A model generated the notes under the pieces. The model had not been told where the DNA came from. It ran no database searches and worked only from the letters and a program-made list of their open reading frames with translations. A DNA stretch of 64,000 nt, taken from positions 8,147,474-8,211,473 of the forward strand of contig JAVLUZ010000157.1 of NCBI GenBank assembly GCA_036768485.1, read 5' to 3'. Shown piece after piece: positions 22,335-32,040 of the stretch. Numbering within the stretch: position 1 is the stretch's first letter; each line of letters opens with the position of its first letter. The translations under genes were made by a program, and so were the position numbers. Source of the DNA: Mermis nigrescens. Lineage: Eukaryota; Nematoda; Enoplea; Mermithida; Mermithidae.

Positions 22335-22945
22335 CCTCCGGGGGTAACTCTTGAAGTTCCATGGCGTAACCCAGAGAACCAGCACTCGGATCGGGCTCAA
22401 ATTATTACCAGAGTATGTTAAGTATATGCTGAGGGTATAAAATTTTGAAGAAGCGCAAGCCTACAGTATACCAGCATTAGTTTACACTTTTGCATAAATC
22501 AAGAACCAATGCTTGGATTTTGTTCAAATTTTCAGGAAATGATGTATATGACGATTAGCTGTGCTATGTACAGAATTTCAGCGCGCAGCCTACAGTATAC
22601 CAATTTACTTTACACTTTCTCATATAGTACTCTAACTTTAGAGATAGAGGGCGGATTGGATTGAAATTTTAAGGGTAGAATAAATATCCTATTAGAAAAC
22701 TATTACAAGAGTTTTGTGGAAATACCTACAGTATATCAATTTTTTACAATGCTCCCAAGAAAAATTGTGTGCACGCGCTTAGGCAGGGGCCCAGAGTCAG
22801 ATGGGGGACACTACCGCCACTTTACACTGTATGATTTTCGCCGATCTACGTCAAACACTCATTGATTGATCGTTCGTGAAAGTATGCATAATATTCTTTT
22901 GTTTGCTCGCTGAAATGGTTGCCACAGATTAGCTAGAATTAGGGC
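22335..22945 (+). repeat. Left terminal inverted repeat of the Polinton
   Basis: Pairs with 31437-32040. Shared blocks include AGAGTCAGATGGGGG, GCGCGCAGCCTACAGTATACC, ACTTTACACTTTCTCATATA and GCCGATCTACGTCAAACACT. The inner end lies at the truncated polymerase gene. Identity fades toward the outer end. Confidence 0.85.
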
Positions 22946-23709
22946 ATTTTTGTTATCAGGTTATAATGATTATTAGCAGTGTGCAAGTGAATCACCTTGT
23001 CAGCTTTAGGTCCTTCAAAAACCAAAACATTGCCATGATATAGTTTTATTTGGTACTCTGGCACCAAAGCATTTTGAATTTTCTCTACAGCTTCAAGCCC
23101 ATATTTATCTTCATTAATGCTAAGATTAGCTTTGTGCATCAGTTCTAATGCTAGCCGTTTTTGCAGAGTACATCGGCTCTTATCTCCTTTCCTAATAGAA
23201 TCCCATTTTGGGCTCTTTTCTAGCTTTGCTATTCCTGTTACAACAGCTCGAGGTAGGGATAAATTATCATTTGAGGTGATTTCAATATATCCACCTCCAT
23301 TTTTACAAAACTCCCTCACATCAGGTTCAAGGCCAGTTCCGGTTTGTTGTTTTTTATTAACAATAACTATTTTGAAAGCTATGTCCTCGCTCAAGCAAAA
23401 CTCGTTCTTAGACTGGGCTACATTTTCTATAATGCTCAAAACCTTGTCAGCATTTATATACTCACGTTGAGTAAATGGAACTAATACAGGCGCATGAAGG
23501 CACGGCTGTCTAATTTCAATACCTACCAAAGAGTCAGGAGGACAGTCATGCAACATCTGCTTAATAGCTTCCTCAAAAATCTGCTCAAAGACCTCAAACA
23601 GATTAGGGCATTTCTTGAACCGCAGCAAAAATGCTCTTGCAGTTGTCTTAAACCTACGAACAAAAATCTCTGGGAACTCATGTACTTCAAAGTATTTATT
23701 CAGATCCAT
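22939..23709 (-). pseudogene. Protein-primed DNA polymerase B, N-terminal fragment only
   Basis: A 256-codon frame starts at ATG 23709. It resembles the N-terminal region that precedes the exonuclease domain in metazoan Polinton type B polymerases: VPFTQREY near residue 97, LPRAVVTGIAKLEKSPKWDS, the KRLALELMHKANLSI block, and near the end VIHLHTANNHYNLITKMP. The family normally continues for several hundred more residues with exonuclease and polymerase motifs. Here the frame stops at 22939 and the terminal repeat begins at once, so the catalytic domains are absent. A TCTATAAATA box lies 38 bp upstream on the same strand (23756-23747). The intact protein would replicate the element. This remnant cannot. 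Confidence 0.8.
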
Positions 23710-23746: not shown

Positions 23747-23756
23747 TATTTATAGA
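23747..23756 (-). promoter_or_regulatory. TCTATAAATA box for the polymerase fragment
   Basis: Exact TCTATAAATA on the minus strand, 38 bp before the ATG at 23709. It is followed by ATGGGC. Confidence 0.7.
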
Positions 23757-24681: not shown

Positions 24682-25740
24682 ATGGATAAATTGTTGACAA
24701 AATTATATTATGACCCTCAAACTGGGTATACGGGGGCGAATCAACTTTTTGCTCGAGTGAAAAAGGTGCGCCCAGCTACAAAATTTGAAAAGGTAAAAGC
24801 ATGGCTGGAAAAGCAACCCACATATACACTACACAAACCTGCAAAGAAACGTTATTCGCGTAACAAGGTAATAGTTAGCGGGGTTGATGAGCAGTGGCAA
24901 GCGGATTTGGTTGATCTACAATCGTTAGCCGACCACAATCATAATTTTAAGTACCTACTCAATTGTATTGATATTTTCTCAAAGTATGCATGGGCAGTTC
25001 CACTTAAATCAAAAACTGGTAAAGAAATTATCGCATCCTTTCAGAAAATTTTCAAATCGTCGGGCCGTAAACCATATAAACTGCAAACGGATCAGGGAAC
25101 TGAGTTTACAAACAAGGAATTTCAGCAATTTTTGAAATCTCAATTTATTGACTTTTTCACGACTAAAAGTGAAATGAAGGCTAGTATTGTTGAGTGGTTT
25201 AATCGTACGCTTAGAGAACGCATGTGACGATATTTCACTAAAAAGAATACATTTAATTATATTGACATTTTGCCCGATTTGCATAAAAATTATAATAATT
25301 CTTTTCATAGGACCATTGGTACATCCCCCGCTAACGTTACCTATAAAAACGAAAGAGAAATTTTAAACAAAGCATTCAGGATTGATAAACCGAACGTTGT
25401 TTTTAAATTTGATATTGGTAATAAAGTTCGTATAAGTAAAGTGAAACGCACATTCGTAAAAGGGTTCTGGCCTAATTGGACCAAAGAATATTTCATTGTT
25501 AAAGAGAGGTTTGCTCGCACACCACCCGTTTATACTCTCGAAGATCAAGAGGGGGAAAAATTAGAGGGTATTTTCTACGAAACCGAGCTGCAAAAAATTA
25601 GTGCAAAATCAGATGATTTATTCGTGATTTAAAAAATTATAAAAATTCGTAAAAAAGGCAAGAAAACTGATTATTTGGTGCGCTGGAGAGGTTACCCGCC
25701 TAAATTTGACTCGTGGGTTTCTGATATTGTAAAGCTCTAA
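24682..25740 (+). pseudogene. Polinton DDE integrase with C-terminal chromodomain, two nonsense codons
   Basis: The frame is open from ATG 24682 but for a TGA at 25225-25227 and a TAA at 25630-25632. The rve-type catalytic core shows the first Asp in QWQADLVDL (residue 75), the second in LQTDQGTEF (residue 137) and Glu in SIVEWFNRTL (residue 171), so the DDE triad is intact. The TGA falls just after RTLRERM, where relatives often have Trp. After the second stop a chromodomain-like tail reads LVRWRGYPPKFDSWV. The sequence belongs to the family typified by C. elegans F54H12.3. The intact enzyme would insert the element DNA into the host genome; two stops inactivate it. Confidence 0.88.
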
Positions 25741-26022: not shown

Positions 26023-26251
26023 TTTGCAAAGTTTGGAATAATTTTTGTAAAGTTTGGAATATTTTTTGTAAAGTCTGGAATATTTTTTGTAAAGTTTGGA
26101 ACATTTTCTGTAAAGTTTGTAATATTTTTTGTAAAGTTTGGAATATCTTTTGTAAATTTTGGAATATTTTTTGTAGAGTTTGGAATATTTTTTTGTAAAG
26201 TTTGGAATATTTTTTGTAAAGTTTGGAAAATTTTTTGTAAAGTTTGAAATA
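26023..26251. repeat. 21-bp minisatellite, about ten units
   Basis: The unit is close to TTTTTTGTAAAGTTTGGAATA, with point changes and one or two single-base indels. Twenty-one bases equal seven codons, and the minus strand reads as repeats of IPNFTKN. It fills the gap between the convergent 25800 gene and the 3' end of the TBP-like gene. Confidence 0.9.
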
Positions 26252-26771
26252 TTAGGTATCTAACCTGCATTTCTCAAGCATTGGTGAAACTATTTTATAT
26301 GCTCTGTGCAATTCATGCTCCTGTTTTGCACCTGTAAGGATCAATTTTCCGCTTGTGAACAGCAAAAATGTTATATTTCTGAATTTGTATATTAAGCCAG
26401 GAAACAATTCCACTTCATACATGCATTTTCTTTTCACCAGGTCATAAAATTTGCAAAGATCAATGCGGAACCCTAAATTAGCAAAGCCTACGAACATATG
26501 GGGTTTCACCTTTAAATCATCACCCCTAGCATTTAATGCATCTACAGCTGCTTTTATAGCACTTTCACCATCTTTCACTGTTTTGGCTCCAACACATACA
26601 ATTTTACCTGATTTGAAAATCAGTATTGTTGCCTGAGGTAGTCGAAATACAATTCCTGGAAATCTCAAATAATTGTATTGTGCAGTCTCTTTGGTAATTT
26701 CTGGTATATTTCTTCGAGGTTAGCGTATGGGGTAGTGCTGTAGTCAGTAAAATATTTTGTATAGTCACCAT
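26252..26771 (-). pseudogene. TATA-binding protein (TBP) homologue inside the Polinton, frameshifted
   Basis: The C-terminal 138 residues are one clean frame (26668-26252) with both TBP direct repeats. The first carries RFPGIVF and LIFKSGKIVCVGAK; the second carries VELFPGLIY and LLFTSGKLILTGAK. The four phenylalanines expected to wedge into the minor groove are present (residues 3, 18, 89 and 104 of that frame). The start of the core is found upstream in two other frames, with ATG 26771 (MVTIQNILLTT) then NLEEIYQKLPKRL. At least two frameshifts therefore lie between 26771 and 26668. The total of about 173 codons equals a TBP core with no N-terminal extension. A GGTATAAATA box on the same strand lies about 30 bp before the ATG. 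Cellular TBP nucleates transcription initiation at TATA boxes. Here it probably served the element's own TATA promoters. Confidence 0.87.
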
Positions 26772-26774
26772 TTT

Positions 26775-26784
26775 TCTATAAATA
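26775..26784 (+). promoter_or_regulatory. TCTATAAATA box for the packaging ATPase
   Basis: Exact TCTATAAATA, 37-46 bp before the ATPase ATG at 26821. It lies just upstream of the TBP start codon on the opposite strand. Confidence 0.7.
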
Positions 26785-26800
26785 CTTCCTAATAAACTTA

Positions 26801-26808
26801 TATTTATA
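26801..26808 (-). promoter_or_regulatory. TATAAATA box for the TBP-like gene
   Basis: Minus-strand GGTATAAATA, about 30 bp upstream of the TBP ATG at 26771. It overlaps the region between the ATPase box and ATPase start, so the two promoters interleave. Confidence 0.6.
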
Positions 26809-26820
26809 CCTAAAACCATA

Positions 26821-27481
26821 ATGTTCCTACATCCTTTCACCTGCCTTCTTTCAGGACCAACAAAGTCAGGCAAAACAACATTTGTCAGGCGATTAATTGA
26901 GAATAGAGCATGCCTGATTGATACTAAAATCAAAAAGATTTGGTGGTGCTTCGCAGAAAATCAGCCTCTTTATAAAAAATTAAATGATGTTTTATTCATA
27001 GAAGGGCTTCCTGAATTCTATTTACCTAAAACAATGTAGTCATGTACCTCAACTTTTGATTCTCGGTGATCTTATGCAACAGAGCAAGGGTAATGCCCAG
27101 ATTGTGCAACTTTTTACAAGGAGTTGTCATCATTGGAACATTAGCATTATACACATTGTTCAAAACGTTTTCTTTGATGGTCTAAGAACTTCACGCATCA
27201 ACTCTGATTACATAGTGTTATTCAAACACTCTGCTGATCAGCTACAGGCACAAATGCTTTCCAGACAGCTCTATCCTGCCAACGCTAAATATTTTCTAGA
27301 AGCTTATTCTGATGCTACTTATCAGCCACATGGTTACCTTTTAATTGATCTAACTCAAAATGCTAGAAATGAGCTCAGACTTAAAACAAATATTTTTAGC
27401 AGGCATCCAACTATTTATATGCATAAATCTATAAATACTAGTAGAGATATTGCAACAAAAAAATGGGTAAAGAACGATTAA
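26821..27481 (+). pseudogene. FtsK/HerA-type genome-packaging ATPase, frameshifted
   Basis: ATG 26821 opens a frame with the Walker A motif GPTKSGKTT at residues 12-20. It stops at 27037-27039. The next frame continues through the Walker B region (QLLILGDLM), the sensor-like block TRSCHHWNISIIHIVQNVFF, then HSADQLQAQMLSRQLYP and a HGYLLIDLTQNARNELRL tail to 27481. Both halves match the A32/HerA-like packaging ATPases of Polintons and adintoviruses. Two oddities are the frameshift between about 27010 and 27037 and the Walker B, which reads GD where the family normally has two acidic residues. The last codons overlap the next gene by 19 bp. The intact enzyme would pump element DNA into a capsid. 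Confidence 0.85.
27428..27437 (+). promoter_or_regulatory. TCTATAAATA box inside the ATPase 3' end
   Basis: Exact TCTATAAATA followed by CTA, 26-35 bp before ATG 27463. It lies inside the ATPase coding sequence, where it encodes SINTS. Confidence 0.65.
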
Positions 27482-27813
27482 CACGCAATATTGGTTGTTT
27501 ACATCTCCTAAGTCAAGCAAGAAAACCTCAAAGAACCGCTATTATAAATACTGCCAGCAAAGATCAAATCCTTTGTCTATGTGACTGTGCAAACAACTTT
27601 CTGAATGGTAATATTCCTTTCGATAAAAAGGATATAAATAAACTTCGAAGATATCACAATCAAATTAGATACCTGGCCAACAATAAGCAGGCGACTACAA
27701 AACAAAAGACAGATATTATAATACAGGAAGGTGGTTTTCTTCCTCTTTTACTTACTCCCATACTTACAATAGCTGGTACTTTGTTAGCTGATGCAATAGC
27801 TGGTAGAAAATGA
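27463..27813 (+). CDS. Conserved small Polinton protein with hydrophobic C-terminus
   Basis: An intact 116-codon frame from ATG 27463 to TGA 27811-27813. The N-terminal half is basic and mixed (RLTRNIGCLHLLSQARKPQR). The middle has a KKDINKLRRYHNQIRYL helix. The C-terminus is strongly hydrophobic and Gly-containing (GGFLPLLLTPILTIAGTLLA). Proteins with this layout recur in animal Polintons, and a membrane-active or minor virion role like adenovirus core/lytic peptides has been suggested for such positions; that is inference here. It overlaps the ATPase by 19 bp and the next gene by an ATGA. A TCTATAAATA box lies 26 bp upstream. It is one of the few unbroken genes in the element. Confidence 0.65.
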   Translation: MGKERLTRNIGCLHLLSQARKPQRTAIINTASKDQILCLCDCANNFLNGNIPFDKKDINKLRRYHNQIRYLANNKQATTKQKTDIIIQEGGFLPLLLTPILTIAGTLLADAIAGRK

Positions 27814-28376
27814 AACATACTGAAAAAATGATTCTTATACCCGCTGAAATCAGCGAGCGGACTAAACCTATTGATGTTGTGCTAGATTCCTTGGATAATG
27901 AATTGCAAAAAGTTTTGCATAGCAAAAGTATGGCACCTGAAATAAAACTCATGAAATACAATCAGGTGCTTAGCAGATTTAAACGACTATATGAACAAAA
28001 GCAGCAGCCATATAGAGCTAGTATAGTTGAAGATGCAAAGAATGCATTGAGTGATGAAGATGTGCTTGTCCGTATGCCAAAAAATCAGATTCCAAAGGCA
28101 AAACTCCTTCTTCACTACATTCGTACAAACCCATTTATTGAAATTGAGCATAATGGTGAGCTTGTGATAGATGGCAATAGAATTGAAGGCTCAAACATTA
28201 CAGATTTAGTTAATGATCTTGCGCGTGTGGGTAAGAAAATAAGCAGGCACCCTGGCAGAAAAGAATTGCTGAAAGCGTTTAATCGCACAAATGTTCCACT
28301 GGAAAGTATAGTAAATAGACAAGGTAAGGAGATTTTTGCGGCAGGTGGGGAATTCGACTGGGATGAAAGTCTATGA
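27810..28376 (+). CDS. Conserved Polinton protein, 188 residues, function unknown
   Basis: Intact from ATG 27810 to TGA 28374-28376. It begins MKHTEKMILIPAEI and continues with a helical region (LDNELQKVLHSKSM, KLMKYNQVLSRFKRLYEQK). The second half has QIPKAKLLLHYIRTNP, a short beta-like stretch (IEIEHNGELVIDG) and a C-terminal DWDESL. The KMxLIP start and the YNQxLxR phrase recur in animal Polinton proteins of unassigned function encoded between the ATPase and capsid genes. It shares an ATGA with the gene before it (27810-27813) and its stop overlaps the next ATG the same way. No TATA box is close, so it probably depends on the 27428 promoter. Confidence 0.65.
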   Translation: MKHTEKMILIPAEISERTKPIDVVLDSLDNELQKVLHSKSMAPEIKLMKYNQVLSRFKRLYEQKQQPYRASIVEDAKNALSDEDVLVRMPKNQIPKAKLLLHYIRTNPFIEIEHNGELVIDGNRIEGSNITDLVNDLARVGKKISRHPGRKELLKAFNRTNVPLESIVNRQGKEIFAAGGEFDWDESL

Positions 28377-28740
28377 ATACTTATCACTCCTAAGGATTAC
28401 AACATTTGGTTGGACTACTACATAGGGCACGCTGCCCAAACAGGCTATGGGTTGGAAGGGTATAAAGGCATCCCATACCAGCGGGGCGTAGGTCTTGGCA
28501 GTTTTTTCCGTTCGCTTTTTAGAATGACAGTCCCAGTTATGCAGTCAATTGGTGAGCGAGTTGGAAAACATGCTCTAGTTGCAGGTTCAAACATAGCGTC
28601 TGATTTGGCCCAGGAAAACCGCTTTTGAGTCTACTAAAGAACACTCAAAGCGAGAAGCTGCTCAATTGTTTGATGAAGCCTCTCATGCCCTTCAGCAGCA
28701 GCAAGGAGAGTGTCTTGGTAGCCGCCCAAAGTCTATAAAT
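28373..28740 (+). pseudogene. Gly-rich conserved Polinton virion-type protein, frameshifted
   Basis: The ATG at 28373 overlaps the previous stop as ATGA. After a few codons the frame must shift to enter the conserved stretch LEGYKGIPYQRGVGLGSFFR, LFRMTVPVMQSIGERVG and KHALVAGSNIASDL. A second shift near 28620 leads to STKEHSKREAAQLFDEASHA. A Gly-rich YQRGxGLGSFF block followed by a VGKxAL helix is typical of a small protein found just before the capsid gene in animal Polintons, perhaps a minor virion or scaffolding component. The 3' limit is uncertain because the next gene's promoter and start overlap here. Confidence 0.55.
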
Positions 28741-28741
28741 A
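28732..28741 (+). promoter_or_regulatory. TCTATAAATA box for the major capsid gene
   Basis: Exact TCTATAAATA followed by CTA. With initiation about 30 bp downstream, the first usable ATG is 28774 and not 28747. Confidence 0.7.
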
Positions 28742-28773
28742 CTAGCATGATAGATGCTTTTTCAAAACAAAAA

Positions 28774-30065
28774 ATGGCTCTCGTAAACGGAAAATCTATC
28801 CCCAGTACCAAGACTGAACTGGACCTTTTACGGTCCCTCCTACTCAAGTAGTGATAAAGCGTGGTTTTTGGCATGAAATTCAACCTACAAATCCTATTAC
28901 TAATGAGGGACCATATGAATTTAGAGTACCTCCTGATCCACATTACATTCAGCTCAATAAAAATTACATTTACATGCTACTGAGAATCAAAAAACCAGTA
29001 GTTGCTACTGGAGCAGCAGTGCCTGACTATGCGCCTATCAATCTTATTGGTAAGACTTTCTTTAAGCAGGTAAAATGCTTTTTAGGTGGCAAATTAGTTT
29101 TTGACAGCTCTGATAAATATGCATATAGATCGTATTTTGAAACTGAATTAAATTATGGCTATGATGCCAAGCATTCGCATTTGCAATCTGCGCTGTACTA
29201 TCATGAAGGTGGAAGTGATGTTGACACAAAAGACAATAAAGCTTTCAAAATACGTTCAAAAATGTTCAAAGATGAAAATGTTGTCGAAATTGCGGCCCCA
29301 CTGCACATTGACATGTTCTTGCAAGACAGATATTTAGTTAATTTTACCGATTTCCGCCTAGAATTACACAGAAATAATAATGCATTTGTTTTGCAGTGCT
29401 TTGAGGATGTCAGCCTTGACTTGAAAGTCTCACAAATGAAATTTTTTATTCGAAAAGTTGAGGTTTTTGACATTGTGAATTTAGCTCTTGAGCAAATAAT
29501 GCTTTCCTATACAGCAAAATATCCCATAAGGAGAGTAGCTTTGACAAATTTGCACATTTCAAATCCTGCTAGAGAAATGCCCAATTATGCATTGTTTACT
29601 GGTCAGCTGCCTAGGCGTATAGTGTTTACTTGTGTTGAAGGCAGTGCTTATCGAGGCAATCTAGCAAAATCGCCTTTCAACTTCAAACCGTTCAGCATAA
29701 ATGATGTAAAAGTAACGTGTGGAGGTATAACGTATCCTGCTTACCCCCTCAGCATTTCATTTAAACATGACAGGTACTTGCAAGCCTATACTCAGATGTT
29801 TGATGCATTACATATTGGGCATGAAGGCAATTTCATTAGCAGAGAAGATTTTAAAACAAGTCACTGCTTCTTTGTGTTCGATTTGACTCCTGATGCGGAT
29901 GATGGAGGACACTGGGACCTAGTCCGTGAAGGAACAACAAGCATCGCTGTTAGGTTTTCTGGGAATTTGCCCAATTCTGGCATTGAAATCATTATGCATG
30001 CTGAATTTAATAACTCAATAATGATTGATAAAAACCGAAACACGTTTCATGACTATGATGCATAA
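28774..30065 (+). pseudogene. Major capsid protein candidate (F54H12.2 family), one frameshift near the start
   Basis: The ATG at 28774 gives MALVNGKSIPSTKTELDL, which matches the usual SELDLF start of F54H12.2-type proteins. A one-base shift near 28825 moves into the long open frame that begins FTVPPTQ and runs uninterrupted to TAA 30063-30065. That frame contains GFWHEIQPTNPIT, GPYEFRVPPDPHYIQL, a central FKQVKCFLGGKLVFDSSDKY and a C-terminal HAEFNNSIMIDKNR. About 420 residues is compatible with a double jelly-roll hexon-type capsid protein, the accepted role in Polintons, though I could not model the fold. The protease gene begins two bases after the stop. Apart from the single early lesion this is the best-preserved large gene of the element. 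Confidence 0.75.
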
Positions 30066-30067
30066 AC

Positions 30068-30484
30068 ATGAACACTATTGAAATATTCAAAATTCTCAAA
30101 CATAATAATACATTTGCAGGCGTTTTCCCAATAGATCGTCTGCCACCTATAAGAACCTACCCTGCGGCTCTAGTTGTAAATCTGGACCCCAGTGAGGAAC
30201 CAGGATCACACTGGGTCGCAATTTATTTTCAAAATAAGAAGCATTGCAACTATTTTGACAACTATGGCTTAGAACCACCTGTGCAATTGCATAAATACAT
30301 TTCTGATAATGCGCTCTCATTTATATACAATAATATGCGAGTACAAGGGCTTTTCTCAATCAGCTGTGGTCATATGTGTATCTACTTTTTGGTCTGCATG
30401 AGCAAAGGCATAAGTTTCACAAACATTGTTCTATCTATGCTCAGTGAAAAAATTTATAAATATTTCAATAAACTAAGGTTATAA
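30068..30484 (+). CDS. Adenain-like cysteine protease (capsid maturation)
   Basis: An intact 138-codon frame from ATG 30068 to TAA 30482-30484. The C5/adenain catalytic elements are in order: His48 in PGSHWVAIYF, Asp64 in CNYFDNYGLEP, Gln93 in NNMRVQGLF and Cys100 in SISCGHMCIYFL. In adenoviruses and Polintons this protease cuts virion precursors. It starts two bases after the capsid gene stop and has no TATA box of its own, so expression probably depends on the capsid promoter. All catalytic residues are present and no lesion is seen, unlike most neighbours. Confidence 0.88.
   Translation: MNTIEIFKILKHNNTFAGVFPIDRLPPIRTYPAALVVNLDPSEEPGSHWVAIYFQNKKHCNYFDNYGLEPPVQLHKYISDNALSFIYNNMRVQGLFSISCGHMCIYFLVCMSKGISFTNIVLSMLSEKIYKYFNKLRL
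30455..30462 (+). promoter_or_regulatory. TATAAATA box for the minor capsid gene
   Basis: TTTATAAATA inside the 3' end of the protease gene, 31-38 bp before ATG 30493. It lacks the leading TC. Confidence 0.5.
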
Positions 30485-30492
30485 AAAAGGAT

Positions 30493-31266
30493 ATGAAACA
30501 GTTTTACATAACGCTTCCGAGCAATTCACAAGAAACAAATACTGCAGCCACATTTGTTACCAATCTGCTTAGACAAATCGCATTAACCGGCGACTGGGAG
30601 GTTGGGTTAGCTGAAATAATTTATGCAAATACATGGCACAATGTTGCTGAGGAGCAGAATATGATACAATTTTATGACATCAAAAACAATGTGCGACAAA
30701 AATTGCTTATTCCTCGAGCAAGATATTTAAATATACATGACCTCATTCAAGCCATGAGAAATGGAATAAAAACGGTTCGCCAAATAGACAAATTTGATTA
30801 CATACAATATTTTGGCATAAAGTATGATGATAATAGGAAATTTTATAAGTTAACAATCAATACTGAATATATTCAAAGTGTAAAGCTGACAAAGCATTTA
30901 ATGTATATGCTAGGATTTCTATAGAGCCAGCTTAGCAATATAGATTATACTGTGAAAAAAGAATTAAACATAGTTGCGCACCATTCACCCGACATGCTAG
31001 GTGGAATGCACAACTTTTACGTATATTGCGATATAGTTGAGCCTCAAATCGTTGGAAATGTTTTTGCACCGCTTCTGCAGGTTGTGAACATAGACGGAAA
31101 ATATATGGATATTGTTAATCACGCATATATTAGTCTACATTATATACCTGTGCTCAAAAAATCATTCAATACCATTGAAGTGAACATTAAAAGTGATCAA
31201 GATAAACCTGTGCCTTTTGAATTTGGCAAAACAATTGTTAAAATGCATTTCAGGTATCGGCTATAA
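30493..31266 (+). pseudogene. Minor capsid/penton candidate, one in-frame stop
   Basis: ATG 30493 begins FYITLPSNSQ and has RQIALTGDWEVGLAEIIYAN, the conserved N-terminal motif of the smaller Polinton capsid-type protein. A TAG at 30922-30924 ends the first 143 codons. The same frame reopens with MLGGMHNFYVYCDIVEPQIV, NVFAPLLQVV and a final KTIVKMHFRYRL, the known C-terminal half, ending at TAA 31264-31266. The total length of about 257 residues fits a single jelly-roll penton. One nonsense codon is the only lesion. The TATAAATA at 30455 is its likely promoter. Confidence 0.7.
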
Positions 31267-31535
31267 ACATTTTATTATCACACCTGCTTTGCCTAAACAG
31301 CGTATCCACCTATGCCTTAGGCAGATACTTTTGGTCTAAGCTCAATGCTGAGTACAAACAAAGTTTAGTAGAAAATGATGCTGAGGCTATCAGCAATTTT
31401 TCCAATTTTCTCAAACAATGTTTTACTTTTCGTGATTTGCCTACCGTAGCTAATATGTGGCAACCTTTCAGCGAGCAAATAAAAGAATATTATGCATATA
31501 CTCACGAACGATCAATCAATGAGTGTTTGACGTAG
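31267..31535 (+). pseudogene. Right-end reading frame running into the terminal repeat
   Basis: An uninterrupted frame after the penton stop reads YALGRYFWSKLNAEYKQSLV, FLKQCFTFRDLPTVANMWQP and EYYAYTHERSINECL to TAG 31533-31535. It has no ATG near its start. It may be the 3' part of a broken gene or begin from an upstream frame. Its last roughly 30 codons lie inside the right terminal repeat, and a degraded copy of the same coding stretch occurs in the left repeat directly after the truncated polymerase. A CTATAAACA sequence lies at 31261. The family is not recognised. Composition is clearly protein-like. Confidence 0.45.
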
Positions 31536-32040
31536 ATCGGCGAAAATCATACAGTGTAAAGTGGCGGTAGTTCCCCCATCTGACTCTGGGCCCCTGCCTA
31601 AGCGCGTGCACACAATTTTTCTTGGGAGAATTGTAAAAAATTGATTTACTGTAGGTATTTCCACAAAACTCTTGTAATAGTTTTCTAATAGGATATTTAT
31701 TCTTCCCTTGAAATTTCAATCCAATCTGCTCTCTATTTCTAAAGTTATAGTACTATATGAGAAAGTGTAAAGTAAATTGGTATACTGTAGGCTGCGCGCT
31801 GAAATTCTGTACATAGCACAGCTAATGTCTATACATCATTCCCTTAAAATTTGAAAAAAATCCAAGCATTGGTTCTTGATTTATGCAAAAGTGTAAACTA
31901 ATGCTGGTATACTGTAGGCTGCGCGCTGAAACTCTGTACATTGCATATCTATTATATATTTAACATACTCTCAAAATTTGAGCCCGATCCGACCGCTGGT
32001 TCTTGAGTTAGGCCTCTTCAAAAATAACCCTCAGGGTAGA
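31437..32040 (-). repeat. Right terminal inverted repeat of the Polinton
   Basis: Inverted partner of 22335-22945. Two internal direct repeats of GGTATACTGTAGGCTGCGCG (about 31780 and 31907) also appear in the left arm. Outer similarity fades after CCCGATCCGA near 31990 and is last visible around AACCCTCAGGGT near 32030. Confidence 0.85.

What the first reader, a model, noticed from the sequence alone, without database searches (positions are those of the whole stretch)
26252..26771. A Polinton that carries its own TATA-binding protein
A minus-strand gene inside the element has both TBP saddle repeats, including LFPGLIY, two SGKxxxxGAK motifs and all four expected DNA-wedging phenylalanines. 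Its length is that of a bare TBP core. TBP is known in some large eukaryotic DNA viruses, but I know of no report of it as a Polinton/adintovirus gene. It lies between the integrase and packaging ATPase, has its own TATA box and is decayed to a similar degree as its neighbours. This argues that it travelled with the element and was not a host gene overrun by it.
Basis: partly seen in the sequence, partly recalled or inferred. Interest (0 to 1): 0.94.

Follow-up and report, generated by a model that had tools for sequence, protein, structure and literature searches.

The report
Virus-like transposon with own TATA-binding protein
A virus-like mobile element, found in many copies in what looks like an animal genome, carries its own gene for the TATA-binding protein, a factor that starts gene reading in complex cells, and has a matching TATA box in front of many of its genes.

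The parts
26252..26719 (-). TBP-like gene, main frame (both saddle repeats; lacks the first ~38 residues in this frame)
26720..26771 (-). start of the TBP gene (ATG at 26771), read in another frame: this copy is disrupted
   Evidence: compare intact starts
26801..26808 (-). TATAAATA box 37 bp before the TBP ATG
26777..26784 (+). TATAAATA box 44 bp before the ATPase ATG (divergent promoter pair with TBP)
26023..26253 (.). 21-bp tandem array, 11 copies, directly after the TBP stop; like arrays at the same place in L012, L014, L018, L031, L036, L043
22363..22935 (.). left inverted repeat (outer end not certain)
31447..32014 (.). right inverted repeat, 91.5% identical to the left; its inner part is coding; outer end not certain
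22939..23709 (-). N-terminal region of family B DNA polymerase only
   Evidence: 31% identity, E 1e-36 to the N-terminus of a PolB frame (L063)
23747..23754 (-). TATAAATA box 45 bp before the PolB-remnant ATG
24682..25632 (+). rve integrase, one in-frame stop
   Evidence: chromodomain in the relative L012
26821..27481 (+). packaging ATPase, in two overlapping frames
   Evidence: weak A32-type match, below cut-off, in the relative L012
27463..27813 (+). conserved element ORF (orf27463); TATAAATA at 27430
27810..28376 (+). conserved element ORF (orf27810); no TATA box found
28377..28851 (+). conserved element frames (orf28377, orf28597), probably a minor virion protein
   Evidence: function inferred
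28774..30065 (+). major capsid protein; first residues in another frame; TATAAATA at 28734
30068..30484 (+). adenain-type C5 protease
   Evidence: PF00770, 25.2 bits (cut-off 21.3)
30493..31266 (+). penton-like protein in two pieces; TATAAATA at 30455
   Evidence: name inferred

Best explanation
The gene is an element-encoded TATA-binding protein and belongs to the ordinary gene set of a Polinton/adintovirus-type lineage. Shown here: TBP homology and predicted fold, a repeated position beside the ATPase, several element families, an independent contig, purifying selection, and an exact TATA box before many element genes, TBP itself included. Inferred: the protein binds these boxes and recruits host TFIIB and RNA polymerase II, since none of the nine element frames scanned with Pfam matched an RNA polymerase domain. 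Its helix 2 has lost the basic AARKYAR-type stretch of cellular TBP (recalled as a docking surface of TAF1, NC2, Mot1 and TFIIA). I therefore infer that it works outside host TFIID control, so that element promoters can fire when the cell's TBP is limiting or repressed, with positive feedback on its own promoter.
For: TBP family match and fold. Copies and linkage: (150 scored of 2119 candidates), (49 of 101 capsid places have a listed TBP within 8 kb, 48 of the 49 on the opposite strand; 42 of 49 gaps are 2138-2216 bp). Fetched flanks: TBP in 10 of 15 capsid flanks picked from the 52 without a listed TBP; ATPase next to TBP in 18 of 20 hand-picked TBP flanks. Other families: (11 of 80 listed PolB places have a listed TBP within 15 kb, 8 of them at 3.4-3.7 kb). 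Independent contig L064: (PF00352 E 2e-45). Selection: (15 pairs among six frames, dN/dS 0.12-0.35, 12 of 15 at or below 0.18). Promoters: 11 TATAAATA in the element, shuffles 1.17 +- 1.09, maximum 5 in 300 shuffles; TATAAATA at -60 to -20 in 20 of 49 starts, shuffles 0.20 +- 0.45; 0 of 49 at -100 to -60; 2 of 49 on the reverse strand. Separate descent from host TBP. Virus-coded TBP and TFIIB are thought to redirect host RNA polymerase in an algal giant virus (PMC12085832, passages).
Against: No binding or expression data. Two gene types have no box in any sampled family (orf27810 0 of 5, protease 0 of 4); integrase has a TATAWAW box in 2 of 5, penton in 1 of 3, and TBP, capsid, penton and orf28377 of L064 have none. 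A TATA box is also what host TBP binds, so the boxes do not prove use of the viral TBP. TBP was absent from 5 of 15 capsid flanks, some of them rearranged. Two TBP lineages (C47 and L064) fall beside cellular TBPs and not with the other 17 viral rows; one viral clade is neither shown nor rejected (p-AU 0.195). Many copies are decayed, the window's included. The 49 starts were chosen by hand and come mostly from related elements.
Confidence: 0.68

Rival explanations
1. The viral TBP is a competitor. It occupies host TATA boxes or titrates TFIIB without supporting initiation, lowering host transcription; the element's own TATA boxes serve the host TBP.
For: The DNA saddle and the YExELFPG stretch are kept while helix 2 has diverged, which would suit a protein that binds DNA but not host regulators.
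Against: An exact TATAAATA on many of the element's own genes, including the TBP gene of the window family, would then harm the element as well.
Confidence: 0.15
2. The viral TBP has a role other than transcription, for example bending DNA during replication or packaging; it lies beside the packaging ATPase and shares a divergent promoter region with it.
For: The TBP|ATPase pair is kept in L064 and in the window's family. ATPase adjoins TBP in 18 of 20 TBP flanks, the inverted mini-arrangements included.
Against: In the C132 family ATPase and TBP are on the same strand, about 0.9 kb apart with other frames between, so the pairing is not universal. The TATA boxes suit a promoter role.
Confidence: 0.1
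3. The viral TBP works with RNA polymerase III or with an initiation complex that lacks TFIIB, as proposed for gammaherpesvirus late transcription.
For: KSHV ORF24 is a TBP mimic, and a section heading of its paper calls the predicted structure incompatible with direct TFIIB binding (PMC12529657, abstract and headings).
Against: No partner proteins of that kind were recognised among the element frames scanned. The YExEL stretch (recalled as TFIIB contact) is kept.
Confidence: 0.05
4. A host TBP retrocopy was overrun by the element, or the match is chance.
For: None found.
Against: Cellular TBPs are only about 35-37% identical, host TBP groups with human, TBP is at hundreds of places and in an independent contig, E 3e-32.
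Confidence: 0.01

Closest known systems
Polintons / Mavericks / adintoviruses
   Same: rve integrase (with chromodomain in relative L012), C5 protease, capsid protein some of whose relatives match the double-jelly-roll model, ATPase, penton-like protein, inverted repeats; PolB in related families
   Different: carries TBP beside the ATPase; window copy spans ~9.65 kb between the outer ends of the repeats and keeps only the N-terminus of PolB
Cellular TBP (PF00352)
   Different: 35-37% identical; helix 2 basic stretch lost; in the window family two residues fewer at the same loop of each repeat
TBP genes of giant viruses and mirusviruses
   Same: virus-encoded TBP fold (BFVD matches; 59% of mirusvirus genomes, PMC10132985 passages)
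   Different: much larger genomes (recalled); best BFVD match 25% identical; no Polinton among the named rows of the 50 shown, though many rows have no name
Gammaherpesvirus late TBP mimic (KSHV ORF24)
   Same: works like: viral TBP that brings host RNA polymerase II to viral promoters (PMC12529657, abstract)
   Different: ORF24 has an extra C-terminal DNA-contacting domain and a noncanonical binding mode; the Polinton protein is a bare TBP core beside canonical TATA boxes
Cymbomonas heliorhodopsin elements
   Same: integrated element with sporadic TBP genes (PMC10675990 passage)

Membership tests
TBP family (PF00352) | two TBP repeats above the curated cut-off | tested here: met
   110.7 bits, cut-off 22.9, two stretches
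TBP family (PF00352) | four DNA-wedging phenylalanines | tested here: met
   of the viral rows aligned there only L030 has another residue (I) at one of them; rows cut by the fetched end do not show all four
TBP family (PF00352) | saddle fold | tested here: met
TBP family (PF00352) | binds TATA DNA and TFIIB | not testable with these tools
   needs the bench
Polinton/adintovirus | rve integrase with chromodomain | tested here: met
   window rve E 1.6e-15; chromodomain E 4.7e-9 in copy L012
Polinton/adintovirus | adenain-type protease | tested here: met
   PF00770 25.2 bits, cut-off 21.3
Polinton/adintovirus | double-jelly-roll major capsid protein | tested here: inconclusive
   no Pfam match for the window frame or L064; some relatives carry PF21738 (P0048, P0085 and others); L062 below cut-off
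Polinton/adintovirus | A32/FtsK-type packaging ATPase | tested here: inconclusive
   Pox_A32 22.1 bits, cut-off 22.8, in copy L012
Polinton/adintovirus | protein-primed DNA polymerase B | tested here: not met
   window copy holds only the N-terminal region; other TBP-bearing families have a PolB nearby. The window copy is therefore described as a defective derivative; Polinton-like applies to the family
Polinton/adintovirus | terminal inverted repeats | tested here: inconclusive
   inverted repeats, 91.5% over 578 columns; that they are terminal is not shown
Polinton/adintovirus | 6-bp target-site duplication | tested here: inconclusive
   identical sequence runs past the right repeat in all four identical places, so the ends are not known

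The most novel reading that the evidence does not exclude
A whole lineage of small, integrating, capsid-coding elements runs its own promoter-recognition system: an element TBP matched to a uniform TATA box that works with host RNA polymerase II apart from TFIID. The divergent TBP|ATPase pair would be an old core of this lineage, and these would be among the smallest genomes with their own general transcription factor.
Probability: 0.5. Interest if true: 0.88.

Novelty: new variant of a known kind. Interest (0 to 1): 0.76.

Why it matters
From recall and the papers seen, I know TBP genes mainly from large DNA viruses. A conserved, selected TBP in Polinton-type elements, with matching TATA boxes, would make it testable how a small integrating DNA virus separates its transcription from host control. 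It also adds new branches of TBPs for the question of how eukaryotic and viral general transcription factors are related.

Tried and rejected
Host retrocopy: rejected by the separate two-exon host TBP and the tree. Chance motif: rejected. A single broken copy: rejected.

IMG/VR (viral contigs) gave no relative in six scans, with TBP, P0002, capsid, integrase, TBP alignment and capsid alignment. Genome contigs gave one. The element ends and target-site duplication could not be fixed. The one 2.3-kb flank read for the C667 TBP family (L059) showed no significant match to a window element gene, so that family's element is not shown; the flank of the C264 family (L061) showed only a piece 74% identical over 54 residues to a small window frame.

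Four places identical over 3,414 bp (the window and three others) share the right flank as well, so they may be larger duplications or assembly haplotypes and are not counted as independent insertions.

Corrections to my notes: note 2 said ATPase adjacent in 19 of 20, and notes 2 and 5 listed nine inverted mini-elements; on rereading the counts are 18 of 20 (L032 has an integrase-like frame between; L030 has no ATPase match) and 8 of 20 (L041 shows one half only). Of the 20 TBP flanks, 18 had no listed capsid gene within 8 kb and two (L037, L042) had one. They were picked by hand from 150, the 15 capsid flanks from 52.

Literature: ten searches, among them polinton, adintovirus, virophage or Maverick with TATA-binding protein, TBP, TATA, TATA box or TFIID. 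Passages were seen in PMC10675990, PMC10132985, PMC11071296, PMC11244446, PMC11464507, PMC12085832, PMC12220804, PMC12721341 and PMC7786948 and abstract plus headings of PMC12529657; none assigns a TBP to a Polinton. Everything else was seen as a listing. The library is open-licence PMC only; the adintovirus paper of Starrett 2021 is not held.

Full report

Surroundings. Inverted repeats of about 570 bp (91.5% identity) lie at 22363-22935 and 31447-32014. Between them lie the N-terminal part of DNA polymerase B (22939-23709; 31% identity, E 1e-36, to a PolB N-terminus of another family), integrase, TBP, ATPase, several conserved small frames, the major capsid protein, an adenain-type protease and a penton-like protein. 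The catalytic part of PolB is missing, and the left repeat abuts the stop of the remnant. Several genes are broken: integrase by an in-frame stop; ATPase, capsid start and penton by lying in pieces. The outer ends are not secure, because identical sequence runs 150 bp past the right repeat in all four identical places.

Copies in the same genome. The genome has 524 Mb in 860 contigs. With the window protein, 150 TBP places were scored of 2,119 candidates, 75-100% identical; part of them hold stops. With the Pfam family (two host exons left out) and a protein of another family, the three capped lists join to 378 distinct places. This is a lower bound for matches, but haplotype duplicates may be, and broken copies are, among them. 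The host's own TBP is a different gene with two exons on contig C73.

Linkage. In the capped lists, 49 of 101 capsid places have a TBP within 8 kb; 48 of the 49 are on opposite strands, and 42 of 49 gaps are 2138-2216 bp. Of the 52 capsid places without a listed TBP I read 15 flanks: 10 of 15 do hold TBP, 9 of 15 between integrase and ATPase; 5 of 15 do not, some through deletion or rearrangement. Of 20 TBP flanks picked by hand (18 without a listed capsid gene) 18 have the ATPase adjacent and 8 have the integrase on the other side; 8 show inverted arrangements about orf27463. All eight loci have integrase on one side and ATPase on the other; four of them are identical. Other families: upstream of the C47-type TBP lie a penton-like gene, protease and a capsid gene 56% identical to the window's, with PolB 9.5 kb away. 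The C132-type TBP follows ATPase, protease and capsid frames at 26-48% identity. Of 80 PolB places typed from the cut list, 11 have a listed TBP within 15 kb, 8 of them at 3.4-3.7 kb; random spacing would give about 2 (378 places x 30 kb / 524 Mb x 80, my arithmetic).

Independent evidence. The capsid protein has 851 relatives in public proteins (best 120 listed). A scan of bacterial and archaeal genome contigs with a capsid alignment gave one locus, L064 (JAJRVU010000309.1, 11,589 bp, labelled a Planctomycetota MAG, probably mis-binned). It has a PolB N-terminal piece (39% over 46 residues), an open TBP frame of 172 residues, the divergent ATPase, the same small frames, integrase, penton-like gene, capsid (36%) and protease (TBP E 2e-45). 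Its TBP is 37% identical to the window's. Two further TBP relatives, P0002 (57% to the window) and P0016 (46% to P0002), come from other collections without context.

Selection and descent. For 15 pairs among six frames dN/dS is 0.12-0.35, 12 of 15 at or below 0.18; of four further pairs two have saturated dS. In a tree of 33 TBPs, the viral rows, the five eukaryotic cellular rows and P0020 form one starred group apart from the archaeal-type and other metagenomic rows; 17 of 19 viral rows group together (87/89, not starred), C47 and L064 fall by the cellular rows, and a single viral clade is not rejected (p-AU 0.195). Host TBP lies near human.

Promoters. TATAAATA occurs 11 times in the element against 1.17 +- 1.09 in 300 shuffles, and 13 times in the other 54 kb, four of these in a simple repeat. 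In the window it stands 33-45 bp before the ATG of six of nine listed genes, on the gene's strand; TBP and ATPase share a 49-bp gap, and each has a box in its own direction at 37 and 44 bp. Over 49 hand-picked starts from the window, other families and L064, 20 have TATAAATA at -60 to -20 (shuffled upstream 0.20 +- 0.45, maximum 2), 0 at -100 to -60 and 2 on the reverse strand; the looser TATAWAW gives 29 against 2.99 +- 1.54, 3 at -100 to -60 and 9 on the reverse strand. orf27810 (0 of 5) and the protease (0 of 4) never have it, perhaps because they are read with the gene before. The TBP genes of L045, L049, L055 and L064 have no box, and the hit in L052 lies in an AT repeat.

Mechanism. Shown: a TBP core under selection, repeatedly placed in the element, and an exact TATA box before many of its genes. 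Inferred: the protein recognises these boxes and brings host RNA polymerase II, because no RNA polymerase domain was matched among the nine element frames scanned. The DNA face and the YExELFPG stretch (recalled as TFIIB contact) are kept, while the basic helix-2 stretch (recalled as contact of TAF1, NC2, Mot1, TFIIA) is lost, which suggests freedom from host regulators. What it works like is the late TBP mimic of gammaherpesviruses (PMC12529657, abstract and headings) and the TBP/TFIIB pair proposed to redirect host polymerase in an algal virus (PMC12085832, passages); it is not filed as a member of either.

Novelty. Viral TBPs are known from giant viruses (BFVD matches) and mirusviruses (PMC10132985 passages). 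Ten full-text searches of an open-licence library and passages of nine papers found no TBP assigned to a Polinton. Subscription papers were not searched. I rate it a new variant of a known kind: a Polinton lineage with its own promoter-recognition factor.

Noticed in passing
window 26023-26253; L012 3397-3668, L014 3408-3714, L018 3515-3712, L031 3864-4286, L036 3170-3426, L043 3912-4164: A tandem array of about 21 bp (TTTGGAATATTTTTTGTAAAG-like; a variant in L018) lies between integrase and the TBP stop in 6 of 6 further loci tested, from several families; function unknown.
   Followed up: partly
L025, L026, L028, L029, L033, L038, L039, L040: Inverted mini-arrangements, two arms of TBP, ATPase and orf27463 facing each other, one arm often incomplete, in 8 of 20 sampled TBP flanks; they resemble defective inverted-duplication genomes.
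   Followed up: no
window 22363-22939 and 31242-32014: The right inverted repeat includes the end of a coding frame and the left one abuts the PolB remnant, as if the left end had been replaced by an inverted copy of the right. The remnant ends at the same or nearly the same residue in L010 and L012.
   Followed up: partly
G000: At least 80 PolB places scored of 1061 candidates, many with frames over 1000 aa: a high load of integrated Polinton-type elements.
   Followed up: no
L045, L051 and like places (C667 family): A further clade of 186-aa TBP frames in more than a dozen places, with no significant Polinton match in the one 2.3-kb flank read (L059).
   Followed up: partly
P0020: TBP-like protein with an N-terminal PF07498 domain, near cellular TBPs in the tree.
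   Followed up: no
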